Shown here in pieces: positions 4,450-62,774 of a stretch of 64,000 nt of DNA; position 1 is the stretch's first letter; each line of letters begins with the position of its first letter. This DNA is from Victivallales bacterium (lineage in GTDB: Bacteria; Verrucomicrobiota; Lentisphaeria; Oligosphaerales; Oligosphaeraceae). A model generated the notes under the pieces. The model ran no database searches. It was not told where the DNA came from and saw only the letters and a list, made by a program, of their open reading frames with translations. A program made the position numbers and the translations under genes. The stretch spans positions 1 to 64,000 of the forward strand of contig JAFZAB010000112.1 of assembly GCA_017548425.1 (NCBI GenBank), given 5' to 3'.

Positions 4450-4995
4450 GTGGCAGATCAATTGAACAAGCCTGAAAACGAAGAAGCGCCTGTCAACACC
4501 CGCGATTTCGTGGGTGCCGTCGCGCAGGATCAGGAATACGAAGAGCGGGTCGTCGCCGTCAACCGCAGCAGCAAGGTTGTGAAAGGCGGCCGTAACTTCT
4601 CGTTCAGCGCCCTGGTCGTCGTCGGCGACAAGAAAGGCAAAGTAGGGATGGGTTTCGGCAAGGCGAACGAAGTAGCCGACGCGATCCGCAAAGGCGGTGA
4701 GCAGGCCCGCAAGAACATTGTGACCGTTCCGATGTTCGGTACGTCGATTACGCATTTTGTGGCGGCGGATTTCCGCGGCGCGAGCGTGATTGTTCGTCCG
4801 GCGTCAGCCGGTACCGGCGTTATCGCCGGCGGCGGCATGCGTCATGTGCTGGAGCTTGGCGGCGTGAAGGACGTCCTCGCGAAGTCCCTCGGTTCCAAGA
4901 ACGCGGTGAATGTCGTGAAAGCGACGTTTGCGGCGATCGCGAAGTTGCGCACACGCAGCGAGATGCTTGCGAAACGCGACCGTAACACTCTGTAA
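4450..4995 (+). CDS. rpsE: 30S ribosomal protein S5
   Basis: S5 helps shape the mRNA entry channel and decoding fidelity. The start is taken as GTG 4450 ([15 protein letters not shown]), because CAGGAG ends 9 bases before it; reading back to 4408 would run into the structured element. The 181 aa product has a roughly 30-residue acidic N-terminal extension, then the S5 core [33 protein letters not shown] and the C-terminal [18 protein letters not shown]. rpmD (L30), normally next, is absent. Confidence 0.96.
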
Positions 4996-7073: not shown

Positions 7074-7109
7074 TCTGGATATTCTGGAAGTTCTGGAAGT
7101 TCTGGAAAT
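7074..7109. repeat. 9-bp tandem array, TCTGGAAGT type (4 units)
   Basis: Four contiguous 9-base units read TCTGGATAT, TCTGGAAGT, TCTGGAAGT and TCTGGAAAT. The array lies between the secY terminator and the dus start. The same unit recurs at 8129-8207, 38569-38604 and, changed to ACTGGATTT, at 43278-43358, always between genes. Confidence 0.85.
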
Positions 7110-7133
7110 GTGAGACGTAAGAAACATAACGTC

Positions 7134-8123
7134 ATGGAAAAACATCAAACAATGTATGTTCTGGCTCCGTTGGCGGGTTATACGGATTTGCCGTTTCGCC
7201 GCATGTGCTGGAAACAGGGCATGGATCAAGCCTACACGGCGTTGATCGACGCGGGAGCGCTCATCTTCGGCAACCCTGAGAATTCGCATATTCTGGCCCG
7301 TGGCGACGACGAGCCGTGGGTTGGCGTTCAGTTGATGGGCAGCCGGCTAGACTTGTTGGAAAAGGCCGCTCCCATGCTGGACGCGATGAATTATGATTGC
7401 GTCGATTTCAACATGGGCTGCCCTGTTCGGAAAGTCGTGCAGCGCAACGCGGGAGCGGCGTTGCTGAAAACGCCGGAACATGCGTTGGAATGCGTCAAAC
7501 TGCTACGGGATTTAATCCACAAGCCGTTTAGTGTTAAAATACGGATTCTGGATGATCATGATTCAGAACCGACCGTGCGTTTCTGTGAACAATTGGAAGC
7601 GATTGGCGTTGAAGCGATTGCAATTCATGGACGGCTTGCCTGCCGCGTCTATTCAGGGCCAGTGGCGATGGATGTCATCAAGGCGGTGCGGGAGGCCTTG
7701 CATATTCCCGTGACGGCAAATGGCGGCATCTTCGGCGTCCGTAGCGCGAAAGCGTTGCAGGACGGAACGGGATGCAGCCGCCTCATGGTGGCGCGCGGGG
7801 CCATCGGCAATCCATGGATTTTCAAATCACTGGCTGACGGAACGGAATACATTCCGACGCATGGCGAAATCTGCGAAGCGATTCGCGAACATCTCGTGGG
7901 GATGGTCGATTTGTATGGCGAACAACAGGCAATGGTCGATGGACGGAAAATCGTTTTAGCTTATATGCGTGGTCGCGGCTATCATCGGGCGTTGAAGAAT
8001 CCAATTTGCAAGATGGTGAGTTGGAGTGATTTCGAACGGATTCTGGCGTCCATCGCTGCCGACAAGGCGGCGGACGAACGGCTTGGTATTTCCGCTGACG
8101 CGACGTTGCAAGATCTGCCATGA
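7134..8123 (+). CDS. dus: tRNA-dihydrouridine synthase
   Basis: Flavin-dependent reductase that makes dihydrouridine in tRNA D-loops. The 329 aa reading from ATG 7134 begins at the FMN barrel (YVLAPLAGYTDLPFRRMC); the longer reading from 7035 would translate the terminator and repeat array and is rejected. The catalytic cysteine is Cys96 in VDFNMGCPVRKVVQRNAG, and the barrel continues with HGRLACRVYSGP, VTANGGIF and LMVARGAIGNPWIF. Which of DusA/B/C type it is cannot be decided; the pattern is closest to DusB-like proteins. It has no operon partner: arrays flank it on both sides. Confidence 0.92.
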   Translation: MEKHQTMYVLAPLAGYTDLPFRRMCWKQGMDQAYTALIDAGALIFGNPENSHILARGDDEPWVGVQLMGSRLDLLEKAAPMLDAMNYDCVDFNMGCPVRKVVQRNAGAALLKTPEHALECVKLLRDLIHKPFSVKIRILDDHDSEPTVRFCEQLEAIGVEAIAIHGRLACRVYSGPVAMDVIKAVREALHIPVTANGGIFGVRSAKALQDGTGCSRLMVARGAIGNPWIFKSLADGTEYIPTHGEICEAIREHLVGMVDLYGEQQAMVDGRKIVLAYMRGRGYHRALKNPICKMVSWSDFERILASIAADKAADERLGISADATLQDLP

Positions 8124-8128
8124 AGAGG

Positions 8129-8207
8129 CTGGAAGTTCTGGAAGTTCTGGAAGTTCTGGATGTCTGTAGGTTCCAGTAAATCCAGAATATCCAGTTTATC
8201 CAGAATT
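8129..8207. repeat. 9-bp array arranged as inverted arms (TCTGGAAGT family)
   Basis: Three CTGGAAGTT units and one CTGGATGT unit (8129-8163) are followed after a few bases by four units in the opposite sense (TCCAGTAAA, TCCAGAATA, TCCAGTTTA, TCCAGAATT; 8172-8207). The two halves can pair through the repeated CTGGA/TCCAG cores, giving a long imperfect hairpin between dus and the SRP RNA promoter. It may end the dus transcript, but no T-tract directly follows the stem. Confidence 0.8.
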
Positions 8208-24991: not shown

Positions 24992-26263
24992 ATGGCCGCG
25001 AACATAGAACCCCTGCCGGGGACGTCGGATATTTGGGAACCGGAGACGTTGGAATGGATAGAGCTAGAACAGGCGGCCCGCGATGTGTTCCACCGTTATG
25101 GATACGGCGAAATCCGCACGCCGATTTTTGAGCGTACGGAAGTGTTTGAGAAGAACTTGGGCGAAGAGTCGGACGTTGTGCAGAAGGAGATGTACACGTT
25201 CCAAGACCGCGGCGGCCGTAGTCTGACGCTGCGTCCCGAAGGGACGGCGGGCGTCATTCGCGCGATTGCGAACAGCGGGTTGGATCAAGGCGATGAACGG
25301 CGCGTGTTCTACTTTGGCCCGATGTTCCGTGGCGAACGTCCGGCGGCGGGGCGCCGCCGTCAGTTCCACCAGATCGGTGTGGAATCCGTCGGGACGAACA
25401 ATCCGTGGATGGACGTCGAAGTGATTTCGATGCTGTGCCGTTTTCTGGACAAGATCGGCCTGAAGGACTGCCATGTGAACATCAACACGAAAGGGCTTCC
25501 GGAAGATCGTCAGCGGGTGACGACCGCCCTCAAGGAATATTTCGCTCCGAAAATCAACGACATGTGCGAAGATTGCCGCCGCCGTCTGGAGACGAATGTG
25601 TGGCGTATTCTGGACTGCAAGTGCGAACCGTGCAAGACGTTCGCGCAGGACGCGCCGAAAATCATTGATTTGCTGAGTGATACGAGTCGCGACTACTTCA
25701 ATAAGGTCTGCGAAGGGTTGAAGCAGGTCGGCGTCGATTACGAATTTGCGCCGCGTCTCGTTCGCGGTCTGGACTACTATGTCCACACGGTTTTCGAAGT
25801 GACCCACACGGGGCTTGGCGCGCAGGATGCGGTCGCTGGCGGCGGGCGCTATCAGATTGCGTTCCCTGGCATGAAGAATCCGATTGAAGGCATCGGTTTC
25901 GCGGCGGGCATGGAGCGTCTGCTGCTGGCTCGCGAGAGCCTCGGCATGGGCGTGAAGACGATCCGTGACGCGGATATCATGATTCTGAGCCTTGGCGAAC
26001 CAGCCGTTCTGCCTGGCCTGCAGTTGGCGGAAACGTTGTGGCAGTCGTTCGGCGACTTGCGCATCAAGGCGGATTTCACGGCGCGAAGCATGAAGGCGCA
26101 GATGCGCGGCGCGAACAAGGCGAACGCGCGGTTGGTGCTGATTCGCGGCGAAAACGAATTGGCGGACGGCACGATCGGCTGCAAGCTGATGGAGACGTCC
26201 GAGCAGGTGACCATCAAGATGGACGAACTGCATGATTTCATAGCCAGCAAGCTGTCTATTTAA
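24992..26263 (+). CDS. hisS: Histidine--tRNA ligase
   Basis: Class II synthetase charging tRNA-His. The 423 aa protein has motif 1 region RYGYGEIRTPIFERTEVF, motif 2 (RPEGTAGVIRA, FRGERPAAGRRRQFHQIGVE), the HisA signature LVRGLDYYVHTVFEV and AGGGRYQIAF, motif 3 GFAAGMERLLLA, and a C-terminal anticodon-binding domain. An insert with four cysteines (CEDCRRRLE ... CKCEPC, about residues 190-214) resembles that of many bacterial HisRS. Ends in an AGCTTAA-type array. aspS follows, the usual hisS-aspS order. Confidence 0.97.
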   Translation: MAANIEPLPGTSDIWEPETLEWIELEQAARDVFHRYGYGEIRTPIFERTEVFEKNLGEESDVVQKEMYTFQDRGGRSLTLRPEGTAGVIRAIANSGLDQGDERRVFYFGPMFRGERPAAGRRRQFHQIGVESVGTNNPWMDVEVISMLCRFLDKIGLKDCHVNINTKGLPEDRQRVTTALKEYFAPKINDMCEDCRRRLETNVWRILDCKCEPCKTFAQDAPKIIDLLSDTSRDYFNKVCEGLKQVGVDYEFAPRLVRGLDYYVHTVFEVTHTGLGAQDAVAGGGRYQIAFPGMKNPIEGIGFAAGMERLLLARESLGMGVKTIRDADIMILSLGEPAVLPGLQLAETLWQSFGDLRIKADFTARSMKAQMRGANKANARLVLIRGENELADGTIGCKLMETSEQVTIKMDELHDFIASKLSI

Positions 26264-26312
26264 AGCTAAAAGCTTAAAGCTAAAAGCTTAAAGCTAAAAG
26301 CTTAAAGCTAAT
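26262..26312. repeat. AGCTTAA-type array, 14-base period
   Basis: AAAGCTAAAAGCTT is repeated about three and a half times directly after the hisS stop. It belongs to the AGCTTAA family. A double-hairpin element begins 14 bases later. Confidence 0.85.
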
Positions 26313-26326
26313 TGCCATTCAATCAT

Positions 26327-26371
26327 GGGAGAGGCGCGCTTCTGCGCGATCGTCGCTTGAAAAGCGACATG
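26327..26371. repeat. Double-hairpin REP-like element upstream of aspS
   Basis: Two adjacent hairpins: CGCGC-TTCT-GCGCG and GTCGCTT-GAAA-AAGCGAC. The layout is the same as at 27830-27881 on the other side of aspS: an AGCTTAA/GGCTTAT array, then GGGAG, then two hairpins of seven or so base pairs. Confidence 0.65.
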
Positions 26372-26407
26372 TAAGACAAAAATGATAGGGCATAATAGAG
26401 GTATAAC

Positions 26408-27766
26408 ATGAGCAACGAAACGAACAAATCTCTGCCGCGCACGAGCATCGGATCGATCAAGGAGAATCTGGACAAGCCAGTGTTGCTTCGTGGTTTCGTG
26501 GAGAATTTCCGCGACAGCAAGGCGATGGCGTTCATCGTCCTGAAGGACATCACGGGCAAGGTGCAGGTGACAGTTGAAAAGGAGAAGCATCCTGAACTGC
26601 TGGAAGAACTTGCGAAAGTCACGCTGGATTCCGTGATCACGGTGGAAGGCGTCGCGGTGGCGAGCGAATACGTGAAACTGAACGGCGTCGAAGTACTGCC
26701 GACGGCGTTGAAAGTGGATTCCGTTGCGGATCCGCTGCCGATCGTCCGCGAAGCGATTCCCGCGACGAAGAAGAAGCCCGGCCTGGATCGTTCGGACATC
26801 GATACGCGTCTGGACTACCGTTGGGTCGATTTGCGCACGGCGAAAAATCAGCTGATGTTCAAGGCTCAGACGGCGTTCGTCGCCGCTTTGCGCGAATTCC
26901 TGCTGAAGAAGGATTTCATCGAAATCCATACGCCGAAACTGATCGGCGCGGCCAGCGAAAGCGGTGCGGATGTGTTCAAAGTCGAGTATTTCGACCGCTT
27001 TGCGTATTTGGCGCAGAGTCCGCAGTTCTACAAGCAGATGGCGATGGCGGCCGGTTTCGAACGCATTTTCGAATGCGGCCCCGTGTTCCGCGCGGAGAAG
27101 TCGTTCACGAACAAGCATACGACGGAATTCACAGGCTTCGATCTAGAGTTCAGCTACATTGATTCCTTCCATGACGTGATGGATATGGAAGCGCAGTTGC
27201 TGACCTACGCATTAGCCGCCGTGAAGGAAAAGTACGGAGACCAGATTGCCGAAGCCTTTGGGCTGGAAGTCGTTGTGCCGACGTTGCCGTTCCCGACCGT
27301 CAAATTGGCGGATCTCTATGCCGCCTTGGAGGCCGAATTCGGCTACAAGGTTCCCGAATCCGAAAAGGGCGATCTGACGACGGAAGCGGAACAACTGAGC
27401 TACGAATGGGTGAAGAAGCACTACAACCACGAGTTCCTCTTCATTACCGACTACAGCGCCGAAAAGCGCGCGTTCTACCACATGCGCGACGAAAACGGCA
27501 TCCCGCAAGGCTACGATTTGATTTGGCGCGGCGTCGAAATCACGACGGGCGCCCAGCGTGAACATCGCTATGACGTGTTGAAGAAGCAGGCCCAGGAGAA
27601 AGGCTTGGACGAAGACGTCAAGTTCTATCTGGAATTCTTCAAATACGGCTGCCCGCCGCATGGCGGTTTCGGTCTTGGCGTGGACCGCTTGACGATGCTG
27701 CTCTGCGGTCTGCACATCAACGAGGCGATGTTCCTCTTCCGCAGCCCGAAACGCCTCACACCATAA
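26408..27766 (+). CDS. aspS: Aspartate--tRNA ligase, archaeal/eukaryotic type
   Basis: The 452 aa length and sequence follow archaeal AspRS, not the roughly 590 aa bacterial form with a GAD insertion. Diagnostic stretches are DIDTRLDYRWVDLRTAKNQ, FIEIHTPKLIGAASESGADV, YLAQSPQFYKQMAMAAGFER (motif 2), FITDYSAEKRAFYHMRDE, RGVEITTGAQREHRYDVL and GCPPHGGFGLGVDRLTMLL (motif 3), ending FRSPKRLTP. The N-terminal 100 residues are an OB anticodon domain. Archaeal-type AspRS enzymes in bacteria are often non-discriminating and feed the amidotransferase route to Asn-tRNA; whether this one is cannot be told here. It sits in the usual place next to hisS. Confidence 0.93.
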   Translation: MSNETNKSLPRTSIGSIKENLDKPVLLRGFVENFRDSKAMAFIVLKDITGKVQVTVEKEKHPELLEELAKVTLDSVITVEGVAVASEYVKLNGVEVLPTALKVDSVADPLPIVREAIPATKKKPGLDRSDIDTRLDYRWVDLRTAKNQLMFKAQTAFVAALREFLLKKDFIEIHTPKLIGAASESGADVFKVEYFDRFAYLAQSPQFYKQMAMAAGFERIFECGPVFRAEKSFTNKHTTEFTGFDLEFSYIDSFHDVMDMEAQLLTYALAAVKEKYGDQIAEAFGLEVVVPTLPFPTVKLADLYAALEAEFGYKVPESEKGDLTTEAEQLSYEWVKKHYNHEFLFITDYSAEKRAFYHMRDENGIPQGYDLIWRGVEITTGAQREHRYDVLKKQAQEKGLDEDVKFYLEFFKYGCPPHGGFGLGVDRLTMLLCGLHINEAMFLFRSPKRLTP

Positions 27767-27783
27767 ACCGCCCGATGGGCGGT

Positions 27784-27829
27784 GCTAAAGGCTTATGGCT
27801 AAAGGCTTATGGCTTATGGCTTATGGCCT
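27784..27829. repeat. GGCTTAT-type heptamer array
   Basis: About six units of GGCTTAT alternating with GGCTAAA, directly after a small ACCGCCC/GGGCGGT hairpin at the aspS stop. It precedes the double-hairpin element at 27830. Confidence 0.82.
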
Positions 27830-33637: not shown

Positions 33638-33668
33638 AGCTTAAAGCTTAAAGCTTAAAGCTTAAAGC
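33638..33668. repeat. AGCTTAA heptamer array
   Basis: Four perfect AGCTTAA units (7-base period) followed by AGC. It lies directly between the PrsW-like gene and the end of the FAD oxidoreductase on the other strand. Confidence 0.85.
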
Positions 33669-38542: not shown

Positions 38543-38568
38543 ACGTATTTCCTGCTAATCCTTTGTAT

Positions 38569-38604
38569 TCTGGAAGTTCTGGATATTCTGGAAGTTCTGG
38601 ATAT
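38569..38604. repeat. 9-bp tandem array, TCTGGAAGT type (4 units)
   Basis: Four units, TCTGGAAGT, TCTGGATAT, TCTGGAAGT, TCTGGATAT, in an alternating order, lying 26 bases after the GH-A stop. The rest of the 300-base gap before fucI contains the fucI promoter at 38748 and otherwise nothing recognisable. Confidence 0.85.
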
Positions 38605-38747
38605 TTGCGGTAGGGCATTCAACATGGTGAAGCGGTTGGCCTCCGGCGGCTGTGGCGGTCTGAAAGCGCTGTGTGAGGAGATTTCTCGCAAAAGACTCGA
38701 AAATGGATGATGCCTGTGGAAAGTCCTCAATTCATTTATAAAAGGTA

Positions 38748-43267: not shown

Positions 43268-43277
43268 TGCATAATTA

Positions 43278-43358
43278 ACTGGACTTTCTGGATTTACTGG
43301 ATTTACTGGATTCACTGGTGCCATCTCCAGAACATCCAGAATCTCCAGAACATCCAGA
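43278..43358. repeat. 9-bp array with inverted arms (ACTGGATTT / ACATCCAGA)
   Basis: Direct units ACTGGACTT, TCTGGATTT, ACTGGATTT, ACTGGATTC (43278-43313) are followed by ATCTCCAGA and ACATCCAGA alternating twice (43323-43358). The two halves are complementary through CTGGA/TCCAG, the same layout as at 8129-8207. The array fills most of the purD to dehydrogenase gap. Confidence 0.82.
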
Positions 43359-43405
43359 ATCATAGTCCTTTAGCCATAAGCGCCGCCTTCGGCGGCTATA
43401 ATAAT

Positions 43406-58997: not shown

Positions 58998-59078
58998 AGC
59001 TAAAAGCTTAAAGCTGAAAGCTTAAAGCGAATGCAAAATTGCTGAGCTAAAAGCTTAAAGCCTAAAGCTTAAAGCGAA
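58998..59078. repeat. Double AGCTTAA-type array
   Basis: Two similar blocks, each GAGCTAAAAGCTTAAAGC-like and ending in GCGAATGC or GCGAATG, cover the gap between pcnB and the next gene (58998-59030 and 59045-59078). Confidence 0.82.
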
Positions 59079-60292: not shown

Positions 60293-60452
60293 AAAACAAT
60301 ACCAGATTTTGTGATAAAACGGCCAAAACAACACCAGATTTTGTGATAAAATGGCTAAAACAACACCAGATTTTGTGATAAAACGGCCAAAACAACACCA
60401 GATTTTGTGATAAAACGGCTAAAACAACACCAGATTTTGTGATGAAATGGCT
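60293..60452. repeat. Five-unit 32-bp tandem repeat between divergent genes
   Basis: Five contiguous 32-base units start at 60293, 60325, 60357, 60389 and 60421. All share AAAACAACACCAGATTTTGTG (one unit has a T in place of the third C), then ATAAAACGGCC or a near variant. Each holds an imperfect dyad TTTTGTGATAAAA. Units 2-4 differ at only a few positions. The unit length is not a multiple of three and there are no spacers, so neither a coding nor a CRISPR role fits. The array fills most of the 406-base gap between the sialidase-like and PL22-like genes. Confidence 0.92.
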
Positions 60453-60590
60453 AGAATAATATCAGTATTGGAAGATTGCTATGGATAAATGGCGTGGAAA
60501 TTGTTCTAAATGGCTTGTAAACATGTCTTGGCGAAGTATTATGATGATTTAACGGTGTTTGGGAAAACTCAATCATTCAGGAAATTATTT

Positions 60591-61661
60591 ATGCAGGACA
60601 ATGACAATATCGTGTTGGAAGAGCGGAAGATCGGTTTTGCAGGAAATGTGAATTTCGTTCCGTACTACACAAACAGTTCATGGAACGCGACGGATAACGC
60701 GTTCTATTTCTTCACCATGCCATGCGACGACGTGACGCCGACGCTCTGCATCTACCATGTCGATACAGATACATCCGAGCGGCTTTTTGATTTGGAATTC
60801 TTCAAGTTCAAAAAGGACAGTGTGGATTTGTTTCCCGCCGTCGTCCTTCCCAAGCGCGGTCTGATGATTTACGGAAACGACGAGAGGATCGCCGTCGCCG
60901 ATCTGAAAACAGGCAGGCAGGAAATCAAGATAACATTGGAGAAAAAGCACATTCATGGTTGCTGCATCTCGCCTGATGAACGGTGTTTATGCTATGGTGA
61001 TTCTGACGACTACGCCGTCACGGACATCCATATCGTGGATACGTTACCGCCTCAATGGAAGGATGTAAGCGTTAACACCGTCAATCTGTTCGCCAATCAT
61101 TTCCAGTTCTTTCCGAACGGCGAAGAAATCCTTTTCGCGCATGAAGGCACGACGGAAAAGATTCCGGACAGGCTAAATCTTCTCAATTGGAAGACTGGCG
61201 AGACGCGTTGCCTGCATCACCATATTTTCGATGACAACGGCCATCAGATAGAATGCATCGGCCATGAACAAGTCGCTGGAAACAAAGTGCTTGCCGTCCG
61301 TTATCCTGTCTCGCGGATGGACTTCGGCATCATCGTGGTCGATCCGAAGACCGGTTCATGTGAACTAGTGGATCAAGGCGACTACTGGCATGCGTCGTCG
61401 GACAAAAATGGCGATCAATTTGTCATGGACACCATGTGGTGGGGGAACAGCCGCCGCCGTACGGGCGGTCTTTTCGACATCACGTTGTTTGACATGAAGG
61501 AACGCAAACGCTTCGTCTTGAAGACATTCGAGGCTGGTTCCATAAACAACCAGATGTATCATCCGCACCCGCATTTCGACGGCACGGGAAAAAAGATTCT
61601 CTATTCCGTGCATCCCAAAGGAACCGAAGAGTGCCATCTCAAACTGCTTCTGCTCAAATAG
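60591..61661 (+). CDS. PL22-like oligogalacturonate lyase family protein
   Basis: A 356 aa beta-propeller. It has the PL22-type stretches NHFQFFPNGEEILFAHEG, LNLLNWKTGETRCLHHH, GHEQVAGNKVLAVRYP and HPHPHFDGTGKKILYSVHP, which contain the His residues that hold the metal in oligogalacturonate lyase. Start ATG 60591 follows AGGAAA; a longer reading from 60510 is possible but unlikely. No signal peptide, as expected for the cytoplasmic enzyme. Activity on unsaturated digalacturonate is likely for the family but not shown. Terminator at 61672. Confidence 0.68.
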   Translation: MQDNDNIVLEERKIGFAGNVNFVPYYTNSSWNATDNAFYFFTMPCDDVTPTLCIYHVDTDTSERLFDLEFFKFKKDSVDLFPAVVLPKRGLMIYGNDERIAVADLKTGRQEIKITLEKKHIHGCCISPDERCLCYGDSDDYAVTDIHIVDTLPPQWKDVSVNTVNLFANHFQFFPNGEEILFAHEGTTEKIPDRLNLLNWKTGETRCLHHHIFDDNGHQIECIGHEQVAGNKVLAVRYPVSRMDFGIIVVDPKTGSCELVDQGDYWHASSDKNGDQFVMDTMWWGNSRRRTGGLFDITLFDMKERKRFVLKTFEAGSINNQMYHPHPHFDGTGKKILYSVHPKGTEECHLKLLLLK

Positions 61662-62708: not shown

Positions 62709-62773
62709 TTAGTGGTTAGTGATTAGTGGTTAGTGGCTTTGGCATTAAGCATTAAGCATTAAGCATTAAGCAT
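62709..62773. repeat. TTAGTGG and GCATTAA tandem arrays
   Basis: TTAGTGG-type heptamers with one variant (62709-62736) are followed by four GCATTAA-type units of 8-base period (62742-62773). Together they fill the gap between trpS and the MBL gene. Confidence 0.8.
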
Positions 62774-62774
62774 T

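What the first reader, a model, noticed from the sequence alone, without database searches (positions are those of the whole stretch)
60293..60452. Five-unit 32-bp array between divergent glycan genes
Five near-identical 32-base units without spacers separate a sialidase-like gene and a PL22-like gene that point away from each other. Each unit holds an imperfect TTTTGTGATAAAA dyad, and the array lies upstream of both starts. It looks like a stack of operators for one regulator, or a recently expanded DNA element with unknown function. Nothing in the known gene content explains a non-coding array of this unit length.
Basis: partly seen in the sequence, partly recalled or inferred. Interest (0 to 1): 0.65.

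Follow-up and report, generated by a model that had tools for sequence, protein, structure and literature searches.

The report
Orphan operator array of defence ATPases
Five head-to-tail 32-base units in a rumen bacterium are a stray copy of a promoter array that, in many bacterial phyla, sits in front of one of the commonest but untested phage-defence genes (an ATPase joined to a nuclease-type domain); the array was not described in the papers searched and gives that gene a testable DNA target.

Summary
The array is real: five 32-bp units at 60293-60453, non-coding, the unit found nowhere else in this genome. It is not a private repeat. Arrays of 32-33 bp units sit upstream of AAA_14-DUF4143 ATPase genes (PADLOC PDC-S01, a common, unvalidated defence candidate): 34 of 55 such genes against 5 of 385 control genes, with significant examples in six other phyla and in viral contigs. 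The repeats are directional, core (A/T)4-N-GTG(A), read toward the ATPase. The window unit matches the arrays of one ATPase clade best (32-bp spacing, core TTTTGTGAT; that clade fills the top ranks). Yet no ATPase of that clade is in this assembly, and the gene the array faces is a beta-propeller ('PL22-like') gene. In relatives, arrays persist where the ATPase is missing (G003 against G001; G000 against G004), so orphan arrays recur. In sister genome G002 the same array keeps the clade's promoter geometry in front of the propeller gene, and its unit is 30/32 identical although fourfold sites are only 70% identical. Best reading: a captured (orphan) operator array. That the ATPase itself binds it is inferred, not shown; a decaying relic is the main rival.

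The parts
60293..60453 (+). array of five 32-bp direct repeats (units at 60293, 60325, 60357, 60389, 60421), consensus AAAACAACACCAGATTTTGTGATAAAACGGCT; directional core TTTTGTGAT reads toward the + strand gene
60454..60465 (+). decayed sixth half-unit at the right edge of the array
   Evidence: sequence and lag-32 segment 60291-60465
60515..60542 (+). promoter-like TTGTAA-N16-TATTAT of the beta-propeller gene, also present in array-less G004; 62 bp downstream of the array
   Evidence: consensus match only
60591..61661 (+). beta-propeller ('PL22-like') gene that the array faces, 356 aa
59069..60187 (-). BNR-like ('sialidase-like') gene on the other side, 372 aa; the array does not read toward it

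Best explanation
The array is an orphan ('solo') member of a class of promoter arrays that normally belongs to AAA_14-DUF4143 ATPase genes (PADLOC PDC-S01; an ATPase fused to a PD-(D/E)XK nuclease-type domain). In that class about two to seven direct repeats, 32 or 33 bp apart (about three helical turns, so on one face of the DNA), lie just upstream of, or overlap, the -35 box of the ATPase gene, with a directional core (A/T)4-N-GTG(A). The window unit belongs to the 32-bp, TTTTGTGAT subclass of one ATPase clade. Most likely an oligomeric protein, plausibly the clade's own ATPase, binds the stack and sets transcription of the gene downstream. Here the array (in G002 together with its promoter) stands before a beta-propeller gene while the ATPase gene is absent, so that gene is, or recently was, under that control. 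Shown: the array, its class, clade match, direction, absence of the clade's ATPase from the assembly, conservation in G002, and array-without-ATPase states in relatives. Inferred: that the ATPase is the binder, whether it represses or activates, and that the window array is still read.
For: Arrays (lag 31-34, score >=18) precede 34 of 55 GxRQVGKT-type ATPases against 5 of 385 control genes, and 7 of 15 AAA_14-type genes of the window's own genome. Phased core: 31 of 81 loci in sense, 4 antisense, against 2 of 385 controls. 17 of 20 ATPase loci from plasmids, phage records and IMG/VR contigs beat 99% of dinucleotide shuffles. The window unit's eight best matches among 75 ATPase upstreams (the eighth tied) are all of the MYLKRK clade, in sense, scores 28, 21, 21, 19, 19, 13, 13, 12, against a control maximum of 14. 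That clade is supported 100/100 and is mostly the 32-bp group. In it the -35 TTGAnn lies mostly 5-10 bp after the array with an N16 spacer; in G002 TTGTAA-N16-TATGTT lies 8 bp after the array, before the propeller gene. No ATPase of the clade is in G000, G002 or G003. Array kept while the ATPase is missing: G003 against G001, G000:C47 against G004:C90. Unit 30/32 identical between G000 and G002 at 70% fourfold-site identity. PADLOC PDC-S01 match E 1.7e-147 for the G001 ATPase.
Against: No binding or expression data. The assembly is 86% complete, so the cognate ATPase may simply be missing from it. In the window the array's own promoter looks eroded and the gene's promoter is 62 bp away, so the array may be a relic. 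Over a quarter of the genes on the array-bearing ATPase branch show no array by these tests (15 of 54). The correlation of array similarity with ATPase similarity is significant but weak (r 0.21) and partly reflects common descent. Thresholds were set after seeing the first Victivallales loci; the plasmid, phage and IMG/VR loci are the cleaner test. Other AT-rich arrays without an ATPase exist in the genome, so not every such array is ATPase-linked today.
Confidence: 0.62

Rival explanations
1. The array is a non-functional relic: an ATPase locus or its promoter once stood or recombined here, the gene was lost, and the repeats are drifting.
For: No cognate ATPase in the assembly; no recognisable promoter directly after the array in the window; G004 lacks the array and keeps the propeller gene; other array-without-ATPase loci exist.
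Against: Unit consensus 30/32 identical to G002 although fourfold sites of the next gene are 70% identical (P about 0.001 at that rate); both copies keep the sense direction toward the propeller gene.
Confidence: 0.27
2. The arrays are operators for a separate regulator (for example one helix-turn-helix protein per genome) that controls both defence ATPases and other genes; the ATPase is a client, not the reader.
For: Arrays also stand before non-ATPase genes (window; MATE gene at L109:2415); the core GTG(A) is shared over clades.
Against: Unit sequences differ between arrays of one genome and follow the ATPase clade rather than the genome; ATPases are single genes on plasmids and viral contigs of many phyla with the array attached and no constant second gene seen.
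Confidence: 0.2
3. A neutral minisatellite made by replication slippage, unrelated to the ATPase arrays.
For: Near-identical units, copy number five here and about four in G002; the genome has other tandem repeats.
Against: Clade-specific match to ATPase arrays in period, core and direction; same unit at the same place in G002.
Confidence: 0.04

Closest known systems
PDC-S01 (AAA_14-DUF4143, PADLOC phage-defence candidate) loci
   Same: The array class found here precedes these genes, and the window unit matches one PDC-S01 clade
   Different: No ATPase gene stands next to the window array; an upstream array is not mentioned in the passages on PDC-S01 that I could read
Direct-repeat operators of ATPase regulators such as MalT and mycobacterial IniR
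   Same: An ATPase-type regulator acting at a promoter; IniR has an SSO1545-like ATPase domain and binds the iniBAC promoter (PMC5760070); MalT boxes as direct repeats are from my own knowledge
   Different: Regular 32-33 bp phasing, an attached nuclease-type domain, and here no ATPase gene; binding is not shown
Iterons and ORB sites of replication initiators
   Same: Phased direct repeats; the ATPase model has ORC/Cdc6-type structural matches after 2QEN
   Different: No replication gene or origin at the window locus; the arrays abut promoters
Solo LTR-like remnants
   Same: A cis element left where the gene is missing
   Different: Not terminal repeats: units flank the ATPase on both sides only exceptionally

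Membership tests
Promoter array of PDC-S01 ATPases (class defined here) | direct repeats of 32-33 bp period, AT-rich, non-coding | tested here: met
Promoter array of PDC-S01 ATPases (class defined here) | directional core (A/T)4-N-GTG(A) reading toward the next gene | tested here: met
   8 phased cores toward the propeller gene, 0 toward the BNR gene
Promoter array of PDC-S01 ATPases (class defined here) | unit resembles the arrays of an ATPase clade | tested here: met
   top ranks all MYLKRK clade, best 28 against control maximum 14
Promoter array of PDC-S01 ATPases (class defined here) | array abuts or overlaps the -35 of a promoter | tested here: inconclusive
   met in G002 (8 bp, N16), not in the window (62 bp to the nearest promoter-like site)
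Promoter array of PDC-S01 ATPases (class defined here) | AAA_14-DUF4143 gene directly downstream | tested here: not met
   the next gene is a beta-propeller ORF; no clade ATPase in the assembly: works like, or derives from, such an array, but is an orphan
Operator bound by the ATPase | protein-DNA binding | not testable with these tools
   needs gel shift or DAP-seq
CRISPR array | unique spacers between repeats | tested here: not met
   units abut without spacers
Dispersed (REP-type) repeat | many copies in the genome | tested here: not met
   one place in the own genome
Structured RNA of Rfam | covariance model match | tested here: not met
   none up to E 1

The most novel reading that the evidence does not exclude
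The 32-33 bp arrays are recognition sites of the PDC-S01 ATPase-nuclease and serve both as its operator and as recombination borders, so that ATPase genes and other small cassettes enter and leave between repeat units, leaving solo arrays that rewire neighbouring genes, much as solo LTRs do.
Probability: 0.15. Interest if true: 0.9.

Novelty: new variant of a known kind. Interest (0 to 1): 0.7.

Why it matters
PDC-S01 is reported as the fourth most common defence system over all prokaryotes, with experimental validation pending for most such candidates (PMC12988326), and as the most frequent individual defence locus in a rumen survey (PMC13356809). The literature library holds one paper with the word DUF4143. 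A conserved, clade-specific repeat array before these genes gives a concrete DNA target for a protein family without a known substrate and suggests self-control by repeat binding. Orphan arrays such as this one show that the sites can outlive the gene and stand before other genes.

Tried and rejected
CRISPR, dispersed-repeat and Rfam readings. A two-sided operator for both neighbours: rejected on direction. A general rule that array units flank the ATPase on both sides: tested over the array-bearing loci, not general (one marginal case). A link of the window array to the ATPase_2-DUF234 gene (PDC-S27) that follows the propeller gene in G002: no array was seen in front of that gene, only 2 of 6 loci of its kind have a 32-33 bp array, and it looks like a separate insertion with a 163-bp duplication of the propeller gene's 3' end. 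An early count of 9 of 15 array-bearing ATPase genes in G000 in my notes was corrected to 7 of 15 (an eighth, L067, has a 23-bp array). The ATPase model (pLDDT 72) is too weak to place a DNA-binding domain with confidence.

Full report
The observation. The window (contig C92 of a 4.9 Mb, 86% complete assembly) carries five 32-bp direct repeats at 60293-60453, consensus AAAACAACACCAGATTTTGTGATAAAACGGCT. The unit is found at one place in the assembly. The array is non-coding, between a minus-strand BNR-like ORF and a plus-strand beta-propeller ORF. The closest named relatives of the propeller gene lie in a Victivallales MAG (RGIG7794, water buffalo reticulum) and in RUG12186.

Relatives at the same place. 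G002 (RUG12186) has about four units of the same array at the orthologous place, upstream of the orthologous propeller gene. G004 (RGIG7794) has the gene at 89% protein identity but no array. The unit consensus of window and G002 differs at 2 of 32 positions, while the gene's fourfold sites are 70% identical; the chance of at least 30 of 32 matches at that rate is 0.001. Shared descent under constraint is the simplest reading; lateral transfer of the array is not excluded.

The lead to the ATPases. A DNA search of 60 relatives gave, besides G002, arrays in G003, G001 and G016. In G001 and G016 the array stands directly upstream of an AAA_14-DUF4143 ATPase gene. Fetching the AAA_14 genes of G000 and G002 showed 32- or 33-bp arrays in front of many of them, most with a unit sequence of their own.

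Statistics. Over 75 ATPase genes and 387 control genes of G000, 34 of 55 GxRQVGKT-type ATPases have a repeat of lag 31-34 (score >=18) within 300 bp upstream, against 5 of 385 controls after removing the window's own two genes (Fisher P 5e-31). GPRQ[SC]GKT-type ATPases had none in 6. A phased core (A/T)4-N(0,1)-GTG is found in sense at 31 of 81 loci, in antisense at 4, and in 2 of 385 controls. Loci chosen only by protein search in plasmids, phage records and IMG/VR confirm it: 17 of 20 exceed 99% of dinucleotide shuffles, with significant representatives of Bacteroidota, Pseudomonadota, Bacillota, Fusobacteriota, Chlamydiota and Actinomycetota. Examples: TTGAAAAGTGTA (Prevotella), GGAAAAGTGTCG (Collinsella), GGAAAAATGTGATA (IMG/VR). 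Phocaeicola, one Fusobacterium and Ruminococcus albus did not pass. The thresholds were chosen after the Victivallales loci were seen, so these other loci are the fairer test.

Which ATPase clade. In a tree of 69 ATPases the clade whose members mostly begin MYLKRK is supported 100/100 and is mostly 32-bp, while its neighbours are mostly 33-bp. The window unit's eight best matches among all ATPase upstreams (the eighth tied) belong to that clade, all in gene-sense direction; the first five score 28, 21, 21, 19 and 19 against a control maximum of 14. In the clade the array is followed, mostly after 5-10 bp, by TTGAnn-N16-TAnnnT. G002 shows the same geometry in front of the propeller gene: array end 4923, TTGTAA at 4931, N16, TATGTT. 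In the window the gene's promoter-like site (TTGTAA-N16-TATTAT at 60515, shared with array-less G004) is 62 bp downstream of the array.

The missing ATPase. The assemblies G000, G002 and G003 hold no member or fragment of the clade; best identities are 30-37%. Arrays without their ATPase recur. G001 and G003 differ by a 1.4 kb segment holding the ATPase, with the array kept in both. The array G000:C47:5480-5631 stands in G004 directly upstream of a DUF4143 gene with one in-frame stop, and the segment that G000 lacks is bordered in G004 by array units on both sides. A third array, G000:C10:2232-2320, precedes a MATE-like gene; its best match in another genus lies before an ATPase in G016. Array units on both sides of the ATPase are not general.

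What the ATPase is. PADLOC calls the family PDC-S01 (E 1.7e-147 for the G001 protein). The DUF4143 part keeps an E-x-DF ... PxEVK pattern of the PD-(D/E)XK kind, and PMC12988326 describes PDC-S01 and PDC-S27 as ATPase domains fused to PD-(D/E)XK members. A model of a viral-contig member (pLDDT 72) resembles 2QEN first, then ORC/Cdc6-type AAA+ proteins and, lower down, MuB: a fold family with DNA-binding members, a lead only.

Mechanism. Most likely the repeats are operators read by an oligomer whose subunits sit about three helical turns apart. Unit sequences that follow the ATPase clade make the ATPase itself the best candidate reader. Overlap with the -35 in several clades would suit autorepression; the geometry of the MYLKRK clade, array just upstream of the -35, could suit activation. 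Nothing here decides the sign. In the window the array is best described as a captured, orphan operator before the beta-propeller gene; a decaying relic is the main rival.

Limits. No experiment; mostly MAGs; 28% of the own genome scanned for orphan arrays; open-access literature only, so 'not described before' means not found there.

Noticed in passing
L109:425-475 and 2232-2320 (G000:C10) against L274 (G004:C230): Two unknown genes (255 and 292 aa) are bordered by copies of the same array unit; G004 lacks this segment and keeps one array: an array-bounded cassette without an ATPase.
   Followed up: partly
L030:5001-8211 (G002:C79): An ATPase_2-DUF234 gene (PDC-S27) is inserted after the propeller gene with a 163-bp duplication of that gene's 3' end, like a 3'-end-restoring insertion.
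   Followed up: partly
window 7074-8206, 26260-27827, 33638-33668, 38566-38605, 43274-43361, 58998-59075, 62709-62774: Short tandem repeats of 7-14 bp (AGCTTAA/GCATTAA type) and 9-18 bp (TTCTGGAAG type), a different repeat family of this genome.
   Followed up: no
L111:1819-1957, L114:16634-16732, L133:19636-19709, L157:1-76: GC-rich repeats of about 33 bp (GGCGTCCCGCC type) recur between genes of G000; not related to the finding.
   Followed up: no
L108:13418-13508 (G000:C8): A 33-bp array (TCTGTCTC...GGAGACAGA dyad) lies downstream of a gene that looks like the AAA-ATPase_like/PDDEXK_9 kind (named from its sequence, not tested) and a 166-aa gene.
   Followed up: no
L104:1-62 (G000:C1) and L076:1-123 (G000:C130): Two contigs begin with the same array unit; the assembly apparently broke inside an ATPase array, so such arrays may be under-counted in short-read MAGs.
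   Followed up: no
L084:2168-2267 (G002:C19): An ATPase_2-type gene has a two-copy 51-bp repeat upstream instead of the 32-33 bp kind.
   Followed up: no
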